Of a stretch of DNA of 64,000 nucleotides, positions 31,626 to 50,380 are shown one piece after another. Numbering within the stretch: the stretch's first letter is position 1; each line of letters starts with the position of its first letter. Below the pieces are notes generated by a model. That model was not told the origin of the DNA. It did no database searches and saw only the letters and a list, made by a program, of their open reading frames with translations. The position numbers and the translations under genes were made by a program. Source of the DNA: a virus; IMG/VR virus record IMGVR_UViG_3300042566_001780, positions 227,688 to 291,687 of that record; one strand, 5' to 3'.

Positions 31626-32861
31626 ATGGCTGTACCAGTTCTAAAAGCTTTCAAATATCGAATATATCCAAATAAGGAGCAGGAGTCCTACCTGCTCCAA
31701 AATTTTGGATGTGTTCGCTTTGTTTGGAACCAGTTGGTAGCCAACTTCAATTCATTCTCAAAAGAAGGTCCAAATCGGCCAATGAATGAAAAGATATTGA
31801 AGGATAATGAACTATATCCTTGGTTAAAAGAGGCGATAAGTTATGCATTGCAGCAAAAGCGAATGGATTTTGATGAGCTGAAGAAACAGTTCTTCAATAA
31901 AGGTCGTAAAGTCAAATTAGGCAGGCCCAAATTCAAAAGACGAGGTAGAAATGAGTCATTCAGAATTCCTGCTGCTTCAATGTACCTAGAAAATTTTGAC
32001 AAAATCAAAGATGGGCGTATCAAATTGCCGAAAATGTCGCCTATGAAAATTGTCATAGATCGGCCTTTTACTGGCAAACCCAAATCGGTCACAGTCTCTA
32101 AAAATGCAAGTGGACAATATTTTGTTTCAATTTTAGTCGAAGAAGACATAGAGTTGAAACAAAATACCGGTCGCTCAATCGGTATTGATCTTGGTTTGAA
32201 AGATTTGCTCATCTTAAGTGATGGCACAAAAGTCTCCAATCCAAGATGGTTTAGAGAAAACCAATCTAAACTAAAGCGAGCACAGCAACATTTAAGTCGC
32301 AAGATAAAAGGTTCAAATAGATACAATAGGCAGAAAATCAAGGTAGCCAAAATCTACAGAGATGTGACAAATCAACGAAAGTTTGTTTATCACAACTTGT
32401 CAAGTTGGCTAGTTGATAACTATGACACTATTTGTACAGAGAACCTTAAAGTGAAGAATATGGTGAAGAATCGCAGTTTGGCAAAGTCGATACAAGATGC
32501 AAGTTGGTCTACGTTCATATCTATGTTAGATTACAAATCTCGTTGGTACGGTCGCACATTCCATAAGATAGACACCTGGTTCCCATCTAGTAAGACATGT
32601 TCTTGCTGTGGACATAAAATGGAATCGATGGATCTATCTGTGAGAGAATGGACTTGTCCATCTTGCAATACGCACCATGATCGTGACTTAAATGCAGCCA
32701 CAAACATACTAAATGAAGGTATTAAAGACCTTTATGACATGACCTCGGCTGAATTAACCGAGTACAGACGTGGAGAGGCAATAAGACCCAAGGAAGTTCT
32801 TCCAAAGGCAGCTTCAGTGAAACGTCTAGTTAGTTTTATAGATTTTTATAAAACGGCGTAA
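31626..32861 (+). CDS. tnpB: TnpB RNA-guided nuclease of IS607-type element
   Basis: The 411-aa protein has an N-terminal helix-turn-helix region (FKYRIYPNKEQESYLLQNFG), the split RuvC nuclease with D188 in SIGIDLGLKD, E272 in CTENLKVKN and the HDRDLNAATN segment near 352-359, and a zinc ribbon (CSCCGHKM...CPSC). All catalytic positions are present. TnpB proteins cut DNA matching the guide next to the element's right end and help it persist. The guide RNA should overlap the 3' end of this gene and extend into the repeat-protein gene to the right. Confidence 0.85.
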   Translation: MAVPVLKAFKYRIYPNKEQESYLLQNFGCVRFVWNQLVANFNSFSKEGPNRPMNEKILKDNELYPWLKEAISYALQQKRMDFDELKKQFFNKGRKVKLGRPKFKRRGRNESFRIPAASMYLENFDKIKDGRIKLPKMSPMKIVIDRPFTGKPKSVTVSKNASGQYFVSILVEEDIELKQNTGRSIGIDLGLKDLLILSDGTKVSNPRWFRENQSKLKRAQQHLSRKIKGSNRYNRQKIKVAKIYRDVTNQRKFVYHNLSSWLVDNYDTICTENLKVKNMVKNRSLAKSIQDASWSTFISMLDYKSRWYGRTFHKIDTWFPSSKTCSCCGHKMESMDLSVREWTCPSCNTHHDRDLNAATNILNEGIKDLYDMTSAELTEYRRGEAIRPKEVLPKAASVKRLVSFIDFYKTA

Positions 32862-41995: not shown

Positions 41996-42496
41996 ATGAG
42001 CAACAGCCTATCGGCTTTTTTAAAAGATCTTGCGGACTACACAAAAAGATTTATTTTCATGGGCAACAGCGATTATGCAAAGCAAATTATTGAATCAATC
42101 GAAGAACTAAAAAGCCAAGTTGTAGCTCTTTCTAAGCCGAGCCTATTTGCAATTTGCAAACTAAAAGTAGAAAATTCTGCTCAAGAAAAACAAGCATTTG
42201 AGTCGTGGGTGAAGTCAGTTTCGGGAGAAAGTGCTGATTTTTCAACAGATGAAACTGGAAATTATCAGCATCCCGAAATGTATGCTGCTTGGTTAGCGTG
42301 GAACGCAAGAGTGACACAGCAAAACTATGTTAAAATTCCCTATGCAAAGCTAAAGCTTAAATCCATTGACAATGGAATGCCGGACTGCCCGCATTGCGGA
42401 AACAATCGTCAAGTTTGGCGAAATCAGATTACGAACAAGCTCACATGTCACCGTGCATATTGCAACACTGTCATTGAAGAAATGGAAACAAAATGA
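41996..42496 (+). CDS. Phage protein with C-terminal zinc ribbon
   Basis: The 166-aa product has a helical start, a middle ESWVKSVSGESADF and AAWLAWNARV segment typical of small phage proteins, and a C-terminal CPHCGNNRQVW...LTCHRAYC zinc ribbon. DNA or RNA binding is plausible. A ribosome site AGAGGAAA precedes ATG 41996. Confidence 0.55.
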   Translation: MSNSLSAFLKDLADYTKRFIFMGNSDYAKQIIESIEELKSQVVALSKPSLFAICKLKVENSAQEKQAFESWVKSVSGESADFSTDETGNYQHPEMYAAWLAWNARVTQQNYVKIPYAKLKLKSIDNGMPDCPHCGNNRQVWRNQITNKLTCHRAYCNTVIEEMETK

Positions 42497-42714
42497 TCAA
42501 GTCTTTTACTCTGAAGCAAATTCCTTCCCATGTTGATCTGGAGCCAGGTGTTACGGTCTACGAGTCTGCTAAGTACGATTATGGTTTGGCAAGTGATGAC
42601 AGTCGATTCACCGGCATTCATCATGTTTCAGTGACTCTTGATCCAACTGGTGACTATCCATTTTTTACGGTTCCTGCACATTTCTTGGAGCCGATTGAGA
42701 ATGTCACAACCTAA
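42493..42714 (+). CDS. Small phage protein, 73 aa
   Basis: The product (MIKSFTLKQIPSHVDLEPGV) is a beta-rich domain with an aromatic tail. It overlaps its neighbours by 4 and 14 bases. Function unknown. Confidence 0.5.
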   Translation: MIKSFTLKQIPSHVDLEPGVTVYESAKYDYGLASDDSRFTGIHHVSVTLDPTGDYPFFTVPAHFLEPIENVTT

Positions 42715-42967
42715 TTGCCTGCATATTCTTCAGGTTGGCAGATCTTTTGTGGCACTCAAAGATAGTGCTTCTGCAAATCGCTATATAGACCATTATGGAC
42801 TGTCAAAACAAGCAGTCCATCTTGGATGCAAAGAAGTCCATCAATCCTACATTGACATTTTTGAAAAGTGTAAAGTTGATAGAATTGGCTTTGAGCATCT
42901 AGGTCTTTTGCTGCAACCCTCATTTACACCGTTTTTCAAACATGTCCCAACAACCAAAAGTAACTGA
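42701..42967 (+). CDS. Small phage protein, 88 aa
   Basis: The product from ATG 42701 (MSQPNCLHILQVGRSFVALK) has several Cys and His but no recognised family. It overlaps the topoisomerase gene start by 26 bases, so it may help its translation. Confidence 0.5.
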   Translation: MSQPNCLHILQVGRSFVALKDSASANRYIDHYGLSKQAVHLGCKEVHQSYIDIFEKCKVDRIGFEHLGLLLQPSFTPFFKHVPTTKSN

Positions 42968-44714
42968 CTACGCCGTTCTTGATGAGATTGAACACGTACG
43001 CCGTCGTACTGGCATGTACGCGGGTTCTACTGAACTGCAAACAGCTTCGGACTGGATTTATGATCCTAATCTAAAGAAGATGGTCAAGAAGCAGGTGAGT
43101 TACATTCCTGCTCTTATCAAAATTTTCTCAGAAATTCTCGATAATGCAATCGATGAACACCGTCGTGCTCCAAACGTGCTTGATGCTATTCGGGTAGATT
43201 TCACTGCAGAAGGCATTATCACAATCACTGATAATGGTCGCGGTATTCCAGTTGAAGTCCATCCGCAAACTGGAAAATATATTGCAGAAACTGTGTTCAC
43301 GACGCTGCGTGCAGGTTCTAACTTTGACGATACAAAAGATCAACAACTTGTTGGCACCAATGGCGTTGGTAGTACACTGACATCTATCTTGTCTACCATG
43401 TTTCGCATCGAATCATGTGATGGCAAGAAGGTGTACACGCAAGAATTTAGAAATGGTCTTCGGGAGCGTGATGAACCGAAGATCAAATCTGACAACAAGA
43501 ATCGTACGAAAATTACATTCAAGCCAGATTACGAATTCTTCAAGTTGAAAGGTTTGGACGCCGATCATGCAATGAAGATGACCAAGAAGATTGCAGATGC
43601 CGCTGCATGTAACCCGGGTGTAAAGTTCTACATTAACGGTGATCGAATTGCTGTTAAGGATTTTGGTGACTACATTTCACTATACACTGATGAGTTTGTG
43701 TATGACGATACTCCTGATTGGAAGGTTGGCATCTCTCATTCTGATGGATTTGAGCAAATTAGCTTTGTCAACTCGGTTGAAACATACCAAGGTGGTACAC
43801 ATGTAGCATACGTAATGGATCAAATTGTTGAAGCCATTCGAGCATATATCAAGAAAAAACATAAGGTAGAAGTAAAGCCTGCTGACATCCGCAATCATAT
43901 GCGGGTGTATATTAGTGCCAACGTGAATCGGCCTAAGTTTTCTTCTCAAACAAAAGAGAATATGATTTCTCAATATGGAACTTACAAGACTTCTTGGGAA
44001 GTTCCTGATAAGATGATTCAGAAGCTGCTGAAGTCGCCAATTATTCAATCTGTGCTTGATTGGGTAGAAGCGAAGCAGAAAGCTGCAGAACTTGCAGAAT
44101 TGCGTAAACTCAACAAAGAAGCGGCAAAAGCAAATCCGCGTCGAGTTGAAAAGTTTGATGACGCCATTGAAAAAGTCAATAGGCACCAGTGCCAGATTTT
44201 TTTTACGGAGGGGGACTGCCTTTTTGAGGACACTTTGATTTATTCTCAAGGCAATGGGAATATTAAAATTAAAGATTTGCAAATAGGTGATTTTGTCCTA
44301 ACTCACCAAAACAATTTCAAACAAATAGTTAACAAAACTACTAAGTTAAAAGAGTGTATAAAATTTTGTCTGGAGGATAATAAAATTTTAATTTGTTCAA
44401 AAGAACATAAAATGTTATGTTATTCTAGAAATGACAAATGTTTTGGCTGGGCAACAGCTGAATACATAGCAAATAATCTAGATTCTTTCTATTTGGTAGA
44501 AAATGAGATAATTTCCAAAAGATGCATGGGGGACGAGCTAATAAGTAAGAACCTCCATGATAACGAATTTATTTTAGAATTTGGCAGTGGCCAAACATGG
44601 GAATCTTCACCCAACCACAGGTGGATGGTTTATCAATTAAAAACAAATAGTTTTGTAGTAGTGTCTACAGAAGATATGGAACTTGGCGATATGTTGTTAA
44701 TGAGTATGTCATAA
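42942..44714 (+). CDS. DNA topoisomerase II large subunit, N-part fused to split-intein N-half
   Basis: The 590-aa product has the GHKL ATPase (E64, N68 in FSEILDNAIDE; DNGRGIP at 97-103; GTNGVG at 138-143), the transducer domain, and stops being topoisomerase at residue 425 in FFTEGD. This is the first half of the TOPRIM EGDSA motif. C426 then opens an intein (CLFEDTLIYS, IKIKDLQIGDFVLTH as block A; ILICSKEHKMLCY as block B). The remaining 165 residues are all intein-like. The enzyme corresponds to T4 gp39. Trans-splicing with the product of 45888-46331 would restore EGDSA. Confidence 0.9.
   Translation: MSQQPKVTDYAVLDEIEHVRRRTGMYAGSTELQTASDWIYDPNLKKMVKKQVSYIPALIKIFSEILDNAIDEHRRAPNVLDAIRVDFTAEGIITITDNGRGIPVEVHPQTGKYIAETVFTTLRAGSNFDDTKDQQLVGTNGVGSTLTSILSTMFRIESCDGKKVYTQEFRNGLRERDEPKIKSDNKNRTKITFKPDYEFFKLKGLDADHAMKMTKKIADAAACNPGVKFYINGDRIAVKDFGDYISLYTDEFVYDDTPDWKVGISHSDGFEQISFVNSVETYQGGTHVAYVMDQIVEAIRAYIKKKHKVEVKPADIRNHMRVYISANVNRPKFSSQTKENMISQYGTYKTSWEVPDKMIQKLLKSPIIQSVLDWVEAKQKAAELAELRKLNKEAAKANPRRVEKFDDAIEKVNRHQCQIFFTEGDCLFEDTLIYSQGNGNIKIKDLQIGDFVLTHQNNFKQIVNKTTKLKECIKFCLEDNKILICSKEHKMLCYSRNDKCFGWATAEYIANNLDSFYLVENEIISKRCMGDELISKNLHDNEFILEFGSGQTWESSPNHRWMVYQLKTNSFVVVSTEDMELGDMLLMSMS
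44217..44711 (+). other. Split intein N-fragment (IntN)
   Basis: Codons 426-590 of the large-subunit N-part. C426 is the splice nucleophile and follows EGD. Block A (IKDLQIGDFVL) and a block-B-like KEHKMLCYSR are present; a second block-B-like SSPNHRWMVY lies near the end. At 165 residues it is longer than most known IntN pieces, so it may keep remnants of a linker domain. Confidence 0.85.
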
Positions 44715-44722
44715 AAATAGCG

Positions 44723-44779
44723 CATTTTTTGTCTCCTTCTATAAATATGAATATATTTTACTGAAGGAGACAAAAAATG
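44723..44779 (+). promoter_or_regulatory. RBS-masking hairpin with late promoter in loop
   Basis: Perfect 17-base arms CATTTTTTGTCTCCTTC (44723-44739) and GAAGGAGACAAAAAATG (44763-44779) enclose a 23-base loop. The right arm holds the GGAG ribosome site and the ATG of the endonuclease gene. The loop starts with TATAAATA (44740-44747), the T4 late promoter core. Read-through RNA would hide the start; RNA begun in the loop would expose it, as known for the T4 I-TevI gene. Confidence 0.85.
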
Positions 44780-45886
44780 TCCATGAAACATAACTTTACT
44801 TTTATTGATACCGATCTTCAAAATCCAATTAATTTTGGAATTAATGAAATTACCCAAAAGAATTTAAACAAATCTATATCTTCCAAGTTTAAAAGAATTC
44901 TTAAAAAAGACTTTATTGATTTTCTATTAGCAAAAGTACCTATAGATAAAAAAATATTTTGCAATTGGTGCGGGCGGCCAAATGTAACATGTAAAGGCAT
45001 TTATGGTATAGATTTTTCTAATATGACAGTATCTCTTATGGATATTGAATACTCCAAAAAGTTACACTGTTGTTATGGAACCACAGAATGTCAAAGTAAA
45101 AAATTAAACCCTAATTCTATAGAATTTGTTTCTAAATCAAGAAATTTGTCATTAGAAGAGGCGCGCGAATACATTCTGAATAGAAATAAATCTCCATTCT
45201 ACAGCAGAAATCATAAAACTTTAGATGATTACAAAAAATATCAAGGATCTAGATGCTTTTCAGATGATGTAGAAAGAAATAAAGAGATAATTAATAAACA
45301 AAATTTTTCAAGAAGTTTAGATGGATTTAAGGAAAAATATGGTCCTATTGAAGGACAACAAAAATATGATCTATATCAATCCAAAAAAGCCATAACTTTA
45401 GAAAATCTTATTAAAAAGTATGATGATCCAAAAGTTGCAGAAGAAAAACTTTTATCTTGGAAAAGATCAACATCTTTGACATTGGAAAATTGTATTAGAA
45501 GACATGGACCAGTAGAAGGGCCTAAGTACTATAAAAAATCCGTTGAAAATGGCGGGCTATATAGTACAATAACTTTTGCATATGACGGGTCTGCGTTAAG
45601 GAGTAATAATGAAAGAAAGTTTTATGAATTACTGCTAGTTGCAGGTATCCCTAAAGAAGAAATATTGATAGATAATTGCTATCCAGAAAGTGCATTGCGA
45701 TATGATTTTTTTATAAAATGCTTAGGCATTTTTATAGAGATAGCTGGTATGAATGATGATCAATATAACGAGAAAATGATTCTAAAAAATAAAATATTCA
45801 ATGCATGGATAGTAAGACCGTTAGAGATTGATAAAGCAGCAACTAAAATAATAGAGTATTACAATTTTTTAAAAGAAGAGAAATGA
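44777..45886 (+). CDS. Putative homing endonuclease between split-intein halves
   Basis: The 369-aa protein has N-terminal cysteines (FCNWCGRP, KLHCCYGTTEC) that may bind zinc, two to three YGPIEGQQKY/HGPVEGPKYY repeats probably contacting DNA, and a C-terminal nuclease-like core with ESALRYDFFIKCLGIFIEIAG, a PD-(D/E)xK or Vsr-like strand pattern (D then E). It is free-standing and sits between the intein halves, the arrangement known as a fractured gene. Its AT-rich codon use differs from the flanking topoisomerase. Translation is controlled by the hairpin at 44723. Confidence 0.7.
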   Translation: MSMKHNFTFIDTDLQNPINFGINEITQKNLNKSISSKFKRILKKDFIDFLLAKVPIDKKIFCNWCGRPNVTCKGIYGIDFSNMTVSLMDIEYSKKLHCCYGTTECQSKKLNPNSIEFVSKSRNLSLEEAREYILNRNKSPFYSRNHKTLDDYKKYQGSRCFSDDVERNKEIINKQNFSRSLDGFKEKYGPIEGQQKYDLYQSKKAITLENLIKKYDDPKVAEEKLLSWKRSTSLTLENCIRRHGPVEGPKYYKKSVENGGLYSTITFAYDGSALRSNNERKFYELLLVAGIPKEEILIDNCYPESALRYDFFIKCLGIFIEIAGMNDDQYNEKMILKNKIFNAWIVRPLEIDKAATKIIEYYNFLKEEK

Positions 45887-45887
45887 T

Positions 45888-46040
45888 ATGTTTGAGAAAC
45901 TTCTGGATGATTTTGAAACTATTGGGAAAAGATTGGTCAAAATTAATGCTGTAGACTTTGCAGGTCTTGCCAATACAGTTGATATTGAGGTTGAAGATGA
46001 TAATTCATTTACCCTATCAAACGGCCTCATTTCTCATAAT
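45888..46040 (+). other. Split intein C-fragment (IntC)
   Basis: Codons 1-51: block F-like VDIEVEDDNSF and the terminal ISHN with penultimate His50 and N51, followed by Ser as first extein residue. It has the size and motifs of known phage IntC pieces (about 35-50 aa). Confidence 0.85.
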
Positions 46041-46331
46041 TCTGCCCGCTCTTCCATTCAGGCTGCTCGCGGTAAAAACAAGTTTATTGGATCTTTTTCT
46101 CTTCGGGGCAAGCCGCTTAATGTATATGATGCCGAAATTAAGGATGTGATTGCAAATGCTGAATTTGCAAACATGCTTGCTGTTACAGGATTGCAACTTG
46201 GAGAAAAAGTTGAAGCTGAGTCTGATGGAAATTGGCACATCATTGAAATTGACGGTAAAGACGTATTGGTTAATGAAAATGATTTTATTAACATTAACGG
46301 TGATCTTATTAAGGTTAAAAATTTGATCTAG
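45888..46331 (+). CDS. Split-intein C-half fused to topoisomerase TOPRIM middle part
   Basis: The 147-aa product starts with a 51-residue IntC: VDIEVEDDNSFTLSNGLI (block F) and SHN (block G, N51). S52 is the +1 residue, and the extein continues SARSSIQAARGKNKFIGSFS, LRGKPLNV and NMLAVTGLQLGEKV as in T4 gp39 and GyrB. Joining to EGD of the N-part gives EGDSA. The last 37 residues (GNWHIIEIDGKDVLVNENDF onward) have no place in a continuous topoisomerase and may be a tail gained when the second cassette split the gene. No promoter seen. Confidence 0.85.
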   Translation: MFEKLLDDFETIGKRLVKINAVDFAGLANTVDIEVEDDNSFTLSNGLISHNSARSSIQAARGKNKFIGSFSLRGKPLNVYDAEIKDVIANAEFANMLAVTGLQLGEKVEAESDGNWHIIEIDGKDVLVNENDFININGDLIKVKNLI

Positions 46332-46346
46332 ACTTTGACGGTTATT

Positions 46347-46354
46347 GCTAAATA
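46347..46354 (+). promoter_or_regulatory. Late-type promoter (GCTAAATA) for second endonuclease gene
   Basis: ATTGCTAAATACATTTTTG lies 19 bases before ATG 46374 and just after the stop of the IntC-topoisomerase piece; an AAAGGA ribosome site follows. Confidence 0.6.
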
Positions 46355-46373
46355 CATTTTTGAAAGGATAAAA

Positions 46374-47423
46374 ATGAAATGTACTTTATGCAATAATGAA
46401 ATACCAAGCATCTATAAAAATAGAATTGCATGTTGTATTAGTCCGTGTGAGTCATTTTTCATAAAACCAAGAACAATATTATGGAAAATAAAAGTATTGG
46501 GCTTCAATGAACAAAAAGTCCTAGATGAAAACCGTAAAAGAACGCAAAAAGCTGGAAATACGAGAAAATCATTGGGGCTTTCTAAAGGTGCAAATAATCC
46601 AAATAGCAAACAATATTTGTTAAATCTAGGTAAGAGTGAAGATGAAATAGCACAATTTCATAAATCTACTGCCAAAAAAATGGTGGATACAAAAATAAAA
46701 GATGACTTTTATAAGGTAAAATCTAATAATCCATATTCTTATGAATACTGGATATCTCGCGGATATTCAAATGAAGAAGCTAAAAATAAAATAAGATCTA
46801 AAAATCATAATTGTGCCGAATACTGGATATCTCGCGGATATTCAAATGAAGAAGCTAAAAAACTAAGTTCAGAAAGTGCTGATACTAATTCATTAAAAGC
46901 AAAAATCAAAAGACATAAAAATGAAGGTCATAAAAAATATATGGAAACAAAAAATAAAATGTCTGGTAGTTGGAATCCAAAATCTGCAAATAGTGTTAGT
47001 TTTTCATCTTCACAATCAGCAAATGCCTTTTTTAAGAAAATATATAAATTTGTTAGGCGGTTGGGTTTCACTAGACATGAGATGACGTTTAAATTAAATT
47101 TCGGTAAAGAATTTTGGATTAAAAAAGATAAAAAAATTTATTTTTATGATTTTGTTTTGCACCCCCTAAGATTGATAGTAGAATTCAACGGCGAACATGT
47201 TCATGTTGATCCTGGTTTATCTTTAGAAGAAAAATTAAAATGGAAACACGCGTTTTCTAAAATGGATGCTTTTAGTATTGAAGAATATGATAAGCAAAAA
47301 AATATAGCAGCTGCTGCTAGAGGGTATAAAATAATTTATGTCTGGTATAAAGATCAGGAATCTGGATTTAATTCTATTGTTGATTTTTTAAAGGAAAAAT
47401 ATAATCATGGTACAAAAGATTAA
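46374..47423 (+). CDS. Vsr-like homing endonuclease
   Basis: The 349-aa protein has an N-terminal Cys motif (MKCTLCNNEI), two copies of EYWISRGYSNEEAK (a repeat typical of phage homing endonucleases), and a C-terminal nuclease core with KIYFYDFVLHPLRLIVEFNG followed by EHVHVDP. The D...EFNGxxxH pattern is that of the Vsr-related (EDxHD-type) homing endonucleases. ATG 46374 is chosen over a longer frame because of the late promoter and AAAGGA. Its 3' end overlaps the third topoisomerase piece by 17 bases, just as an endonuclease gene abuts gene 60 in T4. Confidence 0.8.
   Translation: MKCTLCNNEIPSIYKNRIACCISPCESFFIKPRTILWKIKVLGFNEQKVLDENRKRTQKAGNTRKSLGLSKGANNPNSKQYLLNLGKSEDEIAQFHKSTAKKMVDTKIKDDFYKVKSNNPYSYEYWISRGYSNEEAKNKIRSKNHNCAEYWISRGYSNEEAKKLSSESADTNSLKAKIKRHKNEGHKKYMETKNKMSGSWNPKSANSVSFSSSQSANAFFKKIYKFVRRLGFTRHEMTFKLNFGKEFWIKKDKKIYFYDFVLHPLRLIVEFNGEHVHVDPGLSLEEKLKWKHAFSKMDAFSIEEYDKQKNIAAAARGYKIIYVWYKDQESGFNSIVDFLKEKYNHGTKD
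46743..46861 (+). repeat. 44-bp exact direct repeat inside endonuclease gene
   Basis: Identical 44-base segments at 46743-46786 and 46818-46861, 75 bases apart, encode the two EYWISRGYSNEEAK units. Exact identity at DNA level points to a recent in-frame duplication. Confidence 0.85.
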
Positions 47424-47990
47424 AGTTAAAGCAAAAAATGTTAAGCCAACTCCCGATCAACTGCGAACTTATGTTCAGCAACAAGGACGTTTGACGACTC
47501 GAAATACGAATTTGCGTTTTGGTAAACTGATTGTGCTATCAGACCAAGACCTTGATGGATAGCTTCGGCTATCCATATTACATACACATTTAAAGAGTTA
47601 TTTGGATTTCATGTTTCTTCACTGCTGCTTTCCTTTTGGGCGAAGTACTGGCCAGAGTTGTTCAAACTCGGCATGGTATATCGGATGAACACTCCGCTTT
47701 ATATTGTCAAAACCAATAAGGGCGAACTTTTAGAATTCTTCACTGAAGAAGATTATGAGCGCTGGGCAGCAAAGGGTATCAAACATAAAGCTGACTATTA
47801 CAAAGGTCTTGGCGGTTTTGATACGGAAACTTTTGAGCGATTTATTGAGAATCTTGATAAGTATCTTGTTAAAATTACAGAGCTTGAAGCCCAAGACCTT
47901 GCAAAAATTGAGCTAGCTTTCTCTAACAAAGAGCAAGATGCTCGCAAAGAGTGGCTTGAGGATATTCGATACTTTGAAATTGAAGATTGA
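47407..47990 (+). CDS. Topoisomerase II large subunit C-part, read through a ribosomal bypass
   Basis: ATG 47407 encodes 51 residues ending NLRFGKLIVLSDQDLDG at GGA 47557-47559, followed at once by TAG. The required continuation of TOPRIM, FHVSSLLLSFWAKYWPELF, starts at 47607 after a 47-base gap, in a different frame. Together they give 178 aa (T4 gp60 is 160). The gap has the T4 gene 60 hop signals (see separate entry). The DxDxDG metal site is complete, so only bypassing yields an active subunit. The start follows AAAGGA and overlaps the endonuclease gene. Confidence 0.9.
47557..47606 (+). other. Translational bypass element, T4 gene 60 type
   Basis: Take-off GGA (47557-47559), stop TAG, hairpin GGATAGC-TTCG-GCTATCC (7-bp stem with UUCG loop, 47557-47574), an internal GAG (47594-47596) and landing GGA (47604-47606). 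Translation resumes at TTT 47607. The gap after take-off is 47 bases; in T4 it is 50, with the same take-off, stop, UUCG hairpin, GAG and landing signals. Upstream codons encode a basic nascent peptide (QKIKVKAKNVK), also as in T4. Confidence 0.9.
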
Positions 47991-47995
47991 AAATT

Positions 47996-49336
47996 ATGCT
48001 AAAAACAGAATCAACTGCAACAGAATTTATTGACGAAAAGCTTCGTCTTTACTCTGCTCACTCCAACATTCGAGGTATACCATTTATTGGAGACGGCTTC
48101 AAACAAGCTCACCGAAAGGCTGTTTGGGGTATGCTTAAACGTGGTGAAAATGCCGACAAAGATACTATTGAAAGAATTTCCGCAAGGTCCGCCAGTGACA
48201 CAAACTACGCGCATGGCGTAGGCTCACTTGAAGGCACAATGGTTGGACTGGCGCAGGATTATGCTGGCAGCAACAATATTCCATTGTTTGAAAAGTTTGG
48301 TCAATTTGGTGATCGTCTCAACAAAAAGCCTGCAGCCTCTCGCTACATTAAAGCAAAGCTTGCACCTTACTTTCGTCAGCTTTTCCGCAAAGAAGATGAT
48401 CTCATTTTCGAGTTCATGACTTCAAATGGAATGGAAGTTGAGCCAAAATACTTTACTCCTCTTTTGCCACTTGTTCTGGTAAACGGAGCTGAAGGTATGG
48501 GTACAGGTCATAGCACCTATATTATGGCCTATAATCCAGAAGAGATTAAAACCAACATCATTAAGCTGCTTGATGGCAAGAAACTTAAACCCAACACAAT
48601 GCTTCCATGGTGGAAGGGGTTTAATGGTTCTGTTAGCCGTAATCCAGAAACTAGTCAACTTGAAATTACAGGTTGTTACAACATTAAGGATGGGCGTACA
48701 CCAATTTTGACTGTTACTGAGCTTCCTATCGGCATCCAAAGTGATCAATACAAAGCTCATTTGGACAAGCTTGAAGATCGTGGAATTATTCTCAGTTACG
48801 ATAATCTTTCTGACAAGCGCGGTTTTGAATTCGTTATTCGGATTCCAAAATCCACTGCAGAAAAAACTGATGAAGAAATTAAAAAGCTCTTCAAACTGGC
48901 ATCAAAAGAAACAGAGAACTTGACTGTTTGGGATGGTGATGGTGTCCTTAAACGGTATGAAAATGTCGAGTCACTTCTTGAAGAATGGGTTGAATGGCGT
49001 GTTGCGCGATTTGAGGATCGTCGCCAAGCTCTAATGAAAAAGACCAAAGAAGACATTCTTTGGGCAAGTGAAAAATACAAGTTCATTATTTTCTATCTGA
49101 AGAATGTCAACTTCTTCCGTGATAATGAAACTAAAGTAATTGTTGAGAGGCTTCAAACTGAAGGTTTTACCCGCATTGAAGATCTTCTAAGCATGCCAAT
49201 GCGATCACTCACTAAGCAAAAGATTGAAGAACTCAAGAATGAAGTTGAAAAACTGAAAGTCATTTTGAATGATCTTGAAAATGACAATGCAACTTCAATG
49301 TTTAAACGAGATCTCAAAGAGTTGAAAATAGCATGA
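47996..49336 (+). CDS. DNA topoisomerase II medium subunit (gp52-like)
   Basis: The 446-aa protein matches the DNA-cleaving subunit of T4-type topoisomerase II and GyrA: DGFKQAHRKAVWGM, HGVGSLEGTMVGLAQDY, FGDRLNKKPAASRYIKAKLA with catalytic R116-Y117, and LPLVLVNGAEGMGTGHSTYI. It forms the DNA gate and a tyrosine-DNA link. ATG 47996 is chosen over an upstream TTG. It follows the bypassed piece by five bases and is not fragmented. Confidence 0.92.
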   Translation: MLKTESTATEFIDEKLRLYSAHSNIRGIPFIGDGFKQAHRKAVWGMLKRGENADKDTIERISARSASDTNYAHGVGSLEGTMVGLAQDYAGSNNIPLFEKFGQFGDRLNKKPAASRYIKAKLAPYFRQLFRKEDDLIFEFMTSNGMEVEPKYFTPLLPLVLVNGAEGMGTGHSTYIMAYNPEEIKTNIIKLLDGKKLKPNTMLPWWKGFNGSVSRNPETSQLEITGCYNIKDGRTPILTVTELPIGIQSDQYKAHLDKLEDRGIILSYDNLSDKRGFEFVIRIPKSTAEKTDEEIKKLFKLASKETENLTVWDGDGVLKRYENVESLLEEWVEWRVARFEDRRQALMKKTKEDILWASEKYKFIIFYLKNVNFFRDNETKVIVERLQTEGFTRIEDLLSMPMRSLTKQKIEELKNEVEKLKVILNDLENDNATSMFKRDLKELKIA

Positions 49337-49494
49337 TCACTATTTGTATAGATGAAGTGAATGACCCAAAAAGCTTTAGCATTTCTAAAGATGGCATGGT
49401 AAAATCTATTTCTGCAGAAATGGACAAATTGCAATTTCTGATTAGCATTCTATCTGCACTGAAATTGGATTTTGAAGTAATTCACTCTAATTGA
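49333..49494 (+). CDS. Small phage protein, 53 aa
   Basis: ATG 49333 overlaps the topoisomerase stop (ATGA). The product ([20 protein letters not shown]) ends in a helix ([20 protein letters not shown]). Coupling supports a real gene. Function unknown. Confidence 0.45.
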
Positions 49495-49497
49495 AAT

Positions 49498-49532
49498 TCT
49501 CCAGTTTTTTCTGCGCCAGAAAAAACTGGAGA
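49498..49532. terminator. Perfect 16-bp hairpin after topoisomerase operon
   Basis: Arms TCTCCAGTTTTTTCTG and CAGAAAAAACTGGAGA are complementary over 16 bases with a CGC loop. The T-run lies in the stem, so it is unusual for an intrinsic terminator and could instead be an RNA processing site. A relative lies at 52853-52871. Confidence 0.55.
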
Positions 49533-49555
49533 CAAATAAAATAGCAAAAAATCTT

Positions 49556-50380
49556 ATGAATGCTTATGAAACGCTAGGTGTCAAACCTGGGACTTCTGCT
49601 GATGATGTCAAAAAGGCATATCGCAAACTTGCTCAAAAATACCATCCCGACAAATATCAAGATGGTCCTGAGAAAATAGAAGCAGAAAAGAAATTCAAAG
49701 AGATTCAAGCTGCATATGAAGAGGTCACAAACCCAAAGCAGCAAAAGAATATGTGGGGGCATGGAAACCCCAATGGCTTTACCGAAATGGATGATATTAT
49801 TCGTGCATTTCGTGAAGCGCATGAAGGTAATTTTCACCAGCGCCGATCAGTCCCAATGATCAACATTCGGCTGTCTCTTAAAGAGGCATTCGAAGGTAAA
49901 AAGATTATGTTGAATATTGATGGAAATAGCATCAATTATCAGATTCGGCCAGGTCTACCATCCGGTGTAGGCTTCATGGATGAAGTGCCTGTTGGTGATG
50001 GTAAAAAGCAAATCAATGTTCGAATTGATATTGTCGACCAAAAGTTTGCATTCAGGCAAATTGGATCTTTTGATGGTATCAATTTTAGCGGCGATCTTGA
50101 AACCGTCATTGATGTTGATGCACTTGATATTCTGTCTGGAAGCTGGATTGAAGTTCAGGATTTCCTTGGAGAAAAGCTTCAAGTGCGAGTACCAAGCGGG
50201 TTCAATGGTGGGCAGATGCTGAAAGTAGCTAATAAAGGTTACTACAACTGGAAGGGTCAAGGATATACAGATCGCGGCCATATGTTTCTTCATGTGCGCC
50301 CGGTCTTCAAAGCAAAGCATGAAATCAATAAAGATAAACTGAAGAAGCTTTATGACGAAGTCTGCGGTGCAAATGCCTAA
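49556..50380 (+). CDS. DnaJ/CbpA-like co-chaperone
   Basis: The 274-aa protein starts with a J domain (residues 1-65) holding the HPD motif at 30-32 and [12 protein letters not shown]. No zinc-finger domain follows; the rest is a two-part C-terminal substrate-binding region ([55 protein letters not shown]), as in CbpA/type II DnaJ. It would recruit host DnaK to phage proteins. It overlaps the next gene by eight bases. Confidence 0.85.

What the first reader, a model, noticed from the sequence alone, without database searches (positions are those of the whole stretch)
47557..47606. T4 gene 60-type ribosomal bypass in a topoisomerase C-part
The frame encoding the TOPRIM DxDxDG motif hits TAG right after GGA, and the homologous continuation begins 47 bases later in another frame. 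The gap has a GGA take-off, UAG, a 7-bp hairpin capped by UUCG, an internal GAG and a GGA landing codon, in the same order as in T4 gene 60 (50-base gap). A frameshift or sequencing error would not recreate all these signals. The 47-base length and different nascent peptide make it a natural variant for testing which signals matter.
Basis: partly seen in the sequence, partly recalled or inferred. Interest (0 to 1): 0.95.

Follow-up and report, generated by a model that had tools for sequence, protein, structure and literature searches.

The report
T4-type ribosome bypass in giant phage
An uncultured large phage appears to make ribosomes skip 47 untranslated bases inside its topoisomerase gene, using a relative of the famous phage T4 "gene 60" hop; together with other natural versions found here, it shows which signals evolution has kept.

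Summary
In a 291.7-kb uncultured phage record the topoisomerase large-subunit frame reads ...SDQDLDG, ending GGA-UAG. The homologous continuation (FHVSSLL...) starts after a 47-nt gap in another frame. Eight relatives have the halves joined with no gap. A covariance model built from four other bypass elements, without the window, finds this site at E = 6e-9; the next best hit in the window is 0.1. The same anatomy occurs in T4, S16, Proteus, Acinetobacter and one other uncultured phage, with gaps of 43-51 nt. Take-off and landing codons change together (GGA/GGA, GGU/GGC, GGG/GGA, GAU/GAC), and GAG stays 6 nt from landing in all six. The split-gene layout and a protein tail (49% identical to T4 gp39's) also match. 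What differs: the adjacent endonuclease is not HNH MobA type, KKYK is not conserved, and the phage is far from Straboviridae. Verdict: a real, probably functional member of the T4 gene 60 bypass family. Bypassing itself is inferred, not shown.

The parts
42942..44714 (+). Topoisomerase large subunit, piece 1: ATPase and gyrase-B domains up to TOPRIM ...FFTEGD, then a split-intein N-half (CLFEDT...)
   Evidence: phrog_543 1.1e-120, PF00204/PF02518; gp41-1 split-intein structures match the joined intein query
44777..45886 (+). ORF of homing-endonuclease type between the two intein halves
   Evidence: weak phrog_22677 match 7e-6; position in a fractured gene
45888..46331 (+). Piece 2: intein C-half ending HN|S, TOPRIM middle part, and C-terminal tail at 46212-46328
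   Evidence: TIGR01443 intein_Cterm 1.1e-5; phrog_543; tail 49% identical to T4 gp39 tail; the phage records hit by the tail are topoisomerase large subunits or that locus
46335..47423 (+). Second endonuclease-type ORF, directly upstream of and overlapping ORF1; not HNH MobA type
   Evidence: 31% identical over 340 aa to the ORF in the same place in L023; phrog_22677 6e-7; no HNH match in Pfam
47407..47559 (+). ORF1 (gene 60-like 5' part, 51 codons, ends SDQDLDG), with the nascent-peptide region at codons 1-34
   Evidence: aligned to T4/S16/CP21 N-termini with invariant Tyr, Arg and DxDxDG
47516..47550 (+). Candidate 5' stem-loop (upper stem 5 bp, 6-nt loop), same place as T4's
   Evidence: -13.2 kcal/mol, reached by 1.4% of synonymous recodings; T4 2.6%
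47557..47559 (+). Take-off codon GGA
47560..47562 (+). UAG stop after take-off codon
47555..47576 (+). Take-off hairpin, 9 bp, cUUCGg loop, contains take-off codon and stop
   Evidence: 100% paired and 6 of 10 pairs doubly changed over six lineages
47560..47606 (+). 47-nt bypassed gap (including landing codon)
   Evidence: absent from eight relatives; R1 hit 47548-47606, E 5.9e-9
47595..47597 (+). GAG (minimal Shine-Dalgarno-like), 6 nt before landing codon, only GAG in the gap
   Evidence: same spacing in all six hairpin-bearing lineages
47604..47606 (+). Landing codon GGA, the only GGA in the gap
47607..47990 (+). ORF2: TOPRIM C-part, 127 aa (FHVSSLLLSFWAKYWPELF...)
   Evidence: PF16898 2e-18; phrog_543 3e-27; 70-79% identical to intact relatives
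47996..49336 (+). Topoisomerase medium subunit (gp52-like), next gene
   Evidence: PF00521 5e-80

Best explanation
This is a T4 gene 60-type programmed ribosomal bypass. The phage topoisomerase large-subunit gene was split by an endonuclease-bearing insertion, and the new downstream gene carries a 47-nt non-coding element at the same TOPRIM position as in T4. Inferred mechanism: ribosomes reach GGA (47557) with UAG in the A site. The nascent peptide and the UUCG hairpin block termination, and peptidyl-tRNA-Gly lets go. [quoted passage not shown] GAG assists landing on GGA (47604), and translation resumes at TTT (47607), joining DLDG to FHVSS in a 178-aa chain that assembles with the upstream pieces. 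The most likely origin is horizontal gain of a cassette (tail + endonuclease + nascent-peptide region + bypass element) by endonuclease homing. Shown here: the sequence anatomy, homology to other bypass elements, absence of the gap from relatives, and protein-level conservation of both halves. Inferred: the translation event and the mobility.
For: Leave-window-out covariance model finds 47548-47606 at E 5.9e-9, next hit 0.1; it is the only strong hit in the 291.7-kb record. Joining the halves aligns with eight intact relatives with no residue gained or lost at DG|FH. Six lineages share stop + UUCG hairpin + GAG-6nt-landing codon, and their take-off/landing codons co-vary within one codon box. 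Hairpin covariation exceeds all shuffles. In the held sequence (about 0.39 Mb) the descriptor hits only bypass loci. gp39-type tail homologous to T4's. 5' stem-loop in the T4 position. In ORF2, first and second codon positions are 81-85% identical to relatives against 31-54% at third positions. No second copy of ORF2 in the record.
Against: No expression or proteomic data; host unknown. T4's KKYK motif is not conserved (LRTYV here, though the Tyr sits 29 residues from the take-off Gly against 30 in T4). No 3' stem-loop after landing. The ORF2 frame is open through this particular gap. The 5' stem-loop support is moderate and it is not seen in all lineages. The contig is a metagenome assembly whose reads could not be checked.
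Confidence: 0.88

Rival explanations
1. The insert has broken the gene: only the 51-aa peptide is made and ORF2 is decaying.
For: A stop and a frame change interrupt the gene; no protein data exist.
Against: ORF2 keeps 127 codons open with third positions far more diverged than first and second; no other copy of ORF2 in the record; the insert is homologous to an element T4 expresses efficiently, with co-varying signals.
Confidence: 0.06
2. A -1 (or +2) frameshift at GGA-UAG reads through the gap, adding about 16 residues (I-ASAIHITYTFKELFG) between DLDG and FHVSS.
For: The ORF2 frame has no stop across the window's gap.
Against: No slippery heptamer at the site; the extra residues would sit directly after the catalytic DxDG; the equivalent frame has a stop within the gap in all five other lineages; it would not explain matched codons and the fixed GAG spacing.
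Confidence: 0.03
3. The two ORFs are translated separately (reinitiation) and the chains assemble.
For: The gene is already in pieces; a standalone gp60 exists in Campylobacter phage CP21; AAAGAG lies before the landing site.
Against: No ATG, GTG or TTG in the ORF2 frame in the gap; the first is a TTG 17 codons after landing, which would drop the conserved FHVSSLLLSFWAKYWPE. CP21's gp60 keeps DxDG joined to its continuation.
Confidence: 0.03
4. The gap is removed from RNA (intron), or is a sequencing or assembly error.
For: IMG/VR metagenome record; reads not available here.
Against: 47 nt is too short for a self-splicing intron and Rfam finds nothing in 42000-50000; an error would not create a homologue of the T4 bypass element.
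Confidence: 0.01

Closest known systems
Phage T4 gene 60 bypass (NC_000866; 50 nt; PMC5009743, PMC3014915, PMC11194080)
   Same: Position after DxDG; GGA/GGA; UAG; UUCG take-off hairpin; single GAG 6 nt before landing; 5' stem-loop place; split gp39/gp60 with endonuclease between; gp39 tail
   Different: 47 nt, 9-bp rather than 10-bp stem; no KKYK; no HNH MobA; 29% protein identity in ORF2; phage distant from T4's family
Bypass loci of other Straboviridae: S16 (48 nt, GGU/GGC), Proteus Pm5461/PM2 (51 nt, GGG/GGA), Lazarusvirus AC4/fHyAci03/KARL-1 (43 nt, GAU/GAC), Aes012 (17 nt, annotated)
   Same: Same layout; stop, hairpin and GAG-6nt-landing (except Aes012)
   Different: MobA-type endonuclease or a relic; other codons; Aes012 has no UUCG hairpin or GAG
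Uncultured phage L023 (IMGVR_UViG_3300002895_000002, 213 kb)
   Same: Related non-HNH endonuclease-type ORF in the same place (31%), tail, hairpin, GAG-6nt-landing
   Different: 45 nt, UGA stop, GGU/GGC; 26% ORF2 identity
Fractured genes with split inteins and endonuclease
   Same: Pieces 1 and 2 show this at EGD|S; a related endonuclease-type ORF lies in a split-intein PhoH-like gene of LR756500
   Different: The bypass site itself has no intein

Membership tests
[quoted passage not shown]
   GGA 47557 and GGA 47604; no other GGA in the gap
T4 gene 60-type programmed bypass | Stop codon directly after take-off codon | tested here: met
   UAG 47560-47562
T4 gene 60-type programmed bypass | Take-off stem-loop with tetraloop containing take-off codon and stop | tested here: met
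   9 bp, UUCG; covariation over six lineages
T4 gene 60-type programmed bypass | GAG 6 nt 5' of landing codon | tested here: met
T4 gene 60-type programmed bypass | Sequence homology to known bypass elements | tested here: met
   leave-out model E 5.9e-9
T4 gene 60-type programmed bypass | 5' stem-loop upstream of take-off | tested here: inconclusive
   Same place and size as T4, p about 0.014 against synonymous recoding, but not seen in every lineage
T4 gene 60-type programmed bypass | Nascent-peptide signal (KKYK about 30 residues before take-off) | tested here: inconclusive
   Homologous region present with Tyr at 29 residues, but motif reads LRTYV
T4 gene 60-type programmed bypass | 3' stem-loop at start of ORF2 | tested here: inconclusive
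   No stable structure found (z +1.4), but the same test also misses T4's (z +1.3), so it has no power here
T4 gene 60-type programmed bypass | Fused product made by bypassing | not testable with these tools
   needs expression or proteomics
mobA + bypass mobile cassette | Topoisomerase gene split with endonuclease ORF immediately upstream of the bypass gene | tested here: met
   46335-47423, overlaps ORF1 by 17 nt
mobA + bypass mobile cassette | HNH endonuclease of MobA type | tested here: not met
   No HNH match, whereas the Pm5461 counterpart (7.7e-5, above cut-off) and the S16 one (0.037, below cut-off) give one; resembles L023's ORF instead
mobA + bypass mobile cassette | Mobility in mixed infection, protection by the bypass insert | not testable with these tools
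   needs phage crosses and cleavage assays

The most novel reading that the evidence does not exclude
The bypass element is a module not tied to MobA. In large phages outside Straboviridae (this one and L023) it travels with an unrelated, probably Vsr-like endonuclease, so bypass cassettes form a broader mobile class in which the hop evolves with its own take-off/landing codon pair.
Probability: 0.45. Interest if true: 0.85.

Novelty: new member of a known kind. Interest (0 to 1): 0.78.

Why it matters
The T4 gene 60 hop is the standard example of long ribosomal bypassing, and a 2010 review called it apparently unique to T4 (PMC3014915). Divergent natural homologues allow a test of what is essential. 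Across six lineages the gap length (43-51 nt), the stop (UAG or UGA), the take-off amino acid (Gly or Asp) and the KKYK motif vary. The UUCG hairpin around the stop, the codon-box match and the GAG 6 nt before landing do not. GAG was reported to have only a modest effect in T4 (PMC5009743), so its strict conservation is unexpected. Finding the element with a different endonuclease in a distant phage also bears on how it spread.

Tried and rejected
DNA searches for the whole motif: the first viral-contig pattern gave four chance hits outside any topoisomerase; a second found only Proteus phage Pm5461; genome contigs none. No relative of ORF2 in bacterial genome contigs. DNA-level similarity of the window's 801-bp region to phage records: none. 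Rfam: nothing. Transcription terminator: the hairpin has no T run and is not listed. Structure of the second endonuclease-type ORF: model too poor to use (mean pLDDT 50), so 'Vsr-like' rests only on my reading of its C-terminal motifs. The profile of all ORF2 parts was too diverse to search with. I first took the gp39 tail and the nascent-peptide region as cassette inventions; Aeromonas phage 65 carries both contiguously in an intact protein, so they are older parts of some phage topoisomerases that the window's close relatives lack.

Full report
WHAT IS THERE. The window is G000:C1:227688-291687 of a 291,687-base IMG/VR virus record. At 47407 an ATG opens a 51-codon frame ending SDQDLDG, the TOPRIM DxDxDG motif, with GGA at 47557-47559 followed at once by TAG. 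The TOPRIM C-part, FHVSSLLLSFWAKYWPELF..., begins at 47607 in another frame and runs 127 codons to 47990 (PF16898 2e-18; phrog_543 3e-27). The gap is 47 nt, 47560-47606. It lies within reach of a hairpin of 9 pairs (47555-47563 with 47568-47576) with a UUCG loop, and contains one GAG (47595-47597) and a closing GGA (47604-47606).

THE GAP IS AN INSERT. Eight viral contigs carry a related gene (C-parts 70-79% identical). In all eight, D[QE]DLDG is directly followed by [FY]H[VI][ST]SL and the frame is open for at least 505 codons upstream. Removing the 47 nt joins the window's gene exactly as in these relatives, with no residue gained or lost. The record holds no second copy of the C-part. In the C-part, codon positions 1+2 are 81-85% identical to relatives while position 3 is 31-54%, so the downstream half has evolved as protein. 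This pairwise measure covers the whole divergence and cannot by itself date the constraint to after the insertion.

SURROUNDINGS. The large-subunit gene is in pieces. Piece 1 (42942-44714) ends in a split-intein N-half after the catalytic EGD. An endonuclease-type ORF follows (44777-45886). Piece 2 (45888-46331) starts with an intein C-half (TIGR01443 1.1e-5; gp41-1 and DnaE intein structures match), continues TOPRIM and ends in a tail. A second endonuclease-type ORF (46335-47423) overlaps the bypass gene by 17 nt. GC falls to 27-33% over the inserted ORFs against roughly 35-44% in the flanking sequence.

COMPARISON WITH T4 AND OTHERS. T4 gene 60 (L009) has its 50-nt gap at the homologous residue; TAGC...TTCG...GCTATC, the A-rich stretch before GAG, and GAG-6nt-GGA align by eye. 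The piece-2 tail is 49% identical to the T4 gp39 tail; searched against 50,697 phage records it hits 55, and the listed ones are topoisomerase large subunits or that locus. Related bypass loci were recovered in Salmonella phage S16 and relatives, Proteus phages Pm5461 and PM2, Acinetobacter Lazarusvirus, and an uncultured 213-kb phage (L023). Take-off / stop / gap / landing: T4 GGA UAG 50 GGA; Pm5461 GGG UAG 51 GGA; S16 GGU UAG 48 GGC; AC4 GAU UAG 43 GAC; L023 GGU UGA 45 GGC; window GGA UAG 47 GGA. In all six there is exactly one GAG in the gap and it lies 6 nt before the landing codon. Bypass had already been proposed by depositors for fHyAci03 and for a 17-nt gap in Aeromonas phage Aes012, so the element is not confined to T4; the 2010 review described it as apparently unique to T4 (PMC3014915).

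STATISTICS. A covariance model from T4, Pm5461, S16 and L023, without the window, gives 41.6 bits and E = 5.9e-9 at 47548-47606; the next hit in 64 kb is 0.1. Over the whole record it is the only strong hit (2.7e-8). E-values from this short calibration are rough, but the distance between first and second is large. The take-off hairpin is paired in 100% of cells over six lineages, with 6 of 10 pairs changed on both sides; no shuffle reached either figure. A plain descriptor of the signals finds the site once in the window, never in 60 simulated windows, and in the held loci only at bypass sites (about 0.39 Mb held).

OTHER T4 SIGNALS. A 5' stem-loop at 47516-47550 lies where T4's does, with a 5-bp upper stem and 6-nt loop in both; 1.4% of synonymous recodings fold as well (T4: 2.6%). 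It is not evident in Pm5461, AC4 or L023 by the same test, so I treat it as suggestive. The nascent-peptide region is homologous (invariant Tyr and Arg) but T4's KKYK reads LRTYV here. No 3' stem-loop was found, though the test does not detect T4's either.

MECHANISM. By homology with the worked-out T4 case (PMC5009743, PMC11194080): stalling at GGA with UAG in the A site, hairpin and nascent peptide blocking termination, release of peptidyl-tRNA-Gly from the codon, forward sliding while mRNA structure refolds behind the ribosome, GAG-aided landing on the only GGA in the gap, and resumption at TTT. The anatomy is shown; every step of the translation event is inferred.

RIVALS. Gene decay is disfavoured by the conserved downstream half and intact signals. 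A -1 or +2 shift would keep the frame open in the window (not in the other five lineages) but would add about 16 residues beside the catalytic DxDG, and no slippery heptamer is seen. Reinitiation would need a start in the gap; none exists in frame except ATT, and the first TTG is 17 codons downstream. Introns and terminators found no support.

ORIGIN. Aeromonas phage 65 has both the tail and the nascent-peptide region contiguously in an intact protein, and Campylobacter phage CP21 has a standalone gp60 with a similar N-terminus and no gap. The window's close relatives lack both segments. The simplest reading is that the window phage gained tail, endonuclease ORF, nascent-peptide region and bypass element together; ancestral presence with loss in the relatives is not excluded. 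In T4 the cassette is attributed to a homing endonuclease, MobA, of HNH type (PMC5009743, PMC2988022). Here the ORF gives no HNH match, while the Pm5461 counterpart does clearly and the S16 one only below its cut-off, and it is 31% identical to the ORF in L023. A distant homologue lies in a split-intein PhoH-like gene of LR756500. Calling it Vsr-like is my reading of motifs; the fold prediction was too poor to use.

PHAGE. The record has a gp23-type capsid gene (PF07068, 2e-89). The medium subunit is at most about 38% identical to any listed phage record, best Xanthomonas phage X1 and Pseudomonas phage pf16. I read it as a large T4-superfamily phage distant from Straboviridae; no tree was built, and the host is unknown.

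VERDICT. Observation confirmed with one numerical correction. Interpretation supported as a homologous member of the T4 gene 60 bypass family; function inferred with high but not complete confidence.

Noticed in passing
42942-46331: The same topoisomerase gene also carries a fractured split intein with its own endonuclease-type ORF at the catalytic EGD|S motif, so one enzyme would need trans-splicing and a ribosomal bypass to be complete.
   Followed up: partly
L023:5439-5924: Second uncultured phage (213 kb) with a gene 60-type bypass: GGU take-off, UGA stop, 45-nt gap, GGC landing, UUCG hairpin, GAG 6 nt before landing. No relative found in viral contigs.
   Followed up: yes
L015:2685-2730 (also L016, L017, L020): Acinetobacter Lazarusvirus bypass uses Asp codons (GAU take-off, GAC landing, 43 nt), one codon upstream of the usual Gly site.
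   Followed up: partly
L025:2442-2461, L024:5096-5115: Aeromonas Tulanevirus phages have a 17-nt gap with GAC at both ends, no UUCG hairpin and no GAG; annotated as a predicted bypass in Aes012. A possible minimal form.
   Followed up: partly
L022:5056-5109: Proteus phage Pm5461 gap is 51 nt, in frame, with only the first UAG as a stop, so stop readthrough could also give a product there.
   Followed up: no
L029:1085-3088, L028:1088-3091: Intact topoisomerases of Aeromonas phages 65 and AS-zj contain the gp39-type tail and the gp60-type nascent-peptide region side by side, so T4's bypass-promoting peptide may derive from an older protein segment.
   Followed up: partly
L051:3004-3510: Campylobacter phage CP21 has a standalone gp60-like gene with no gap, among tail genes: a split subunit without bypass.
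   Followed up: partly
L050:3599-5900: Uncultured phage LR756500 has a PhoH-like gene split by a split intein around an endonuclease-type ORF distantly related to the window's.
   Followed up: partly
31626-32858: Transposase-family ORF (phrog_506, 4e-128) in the phage genome.
   Followed up: no
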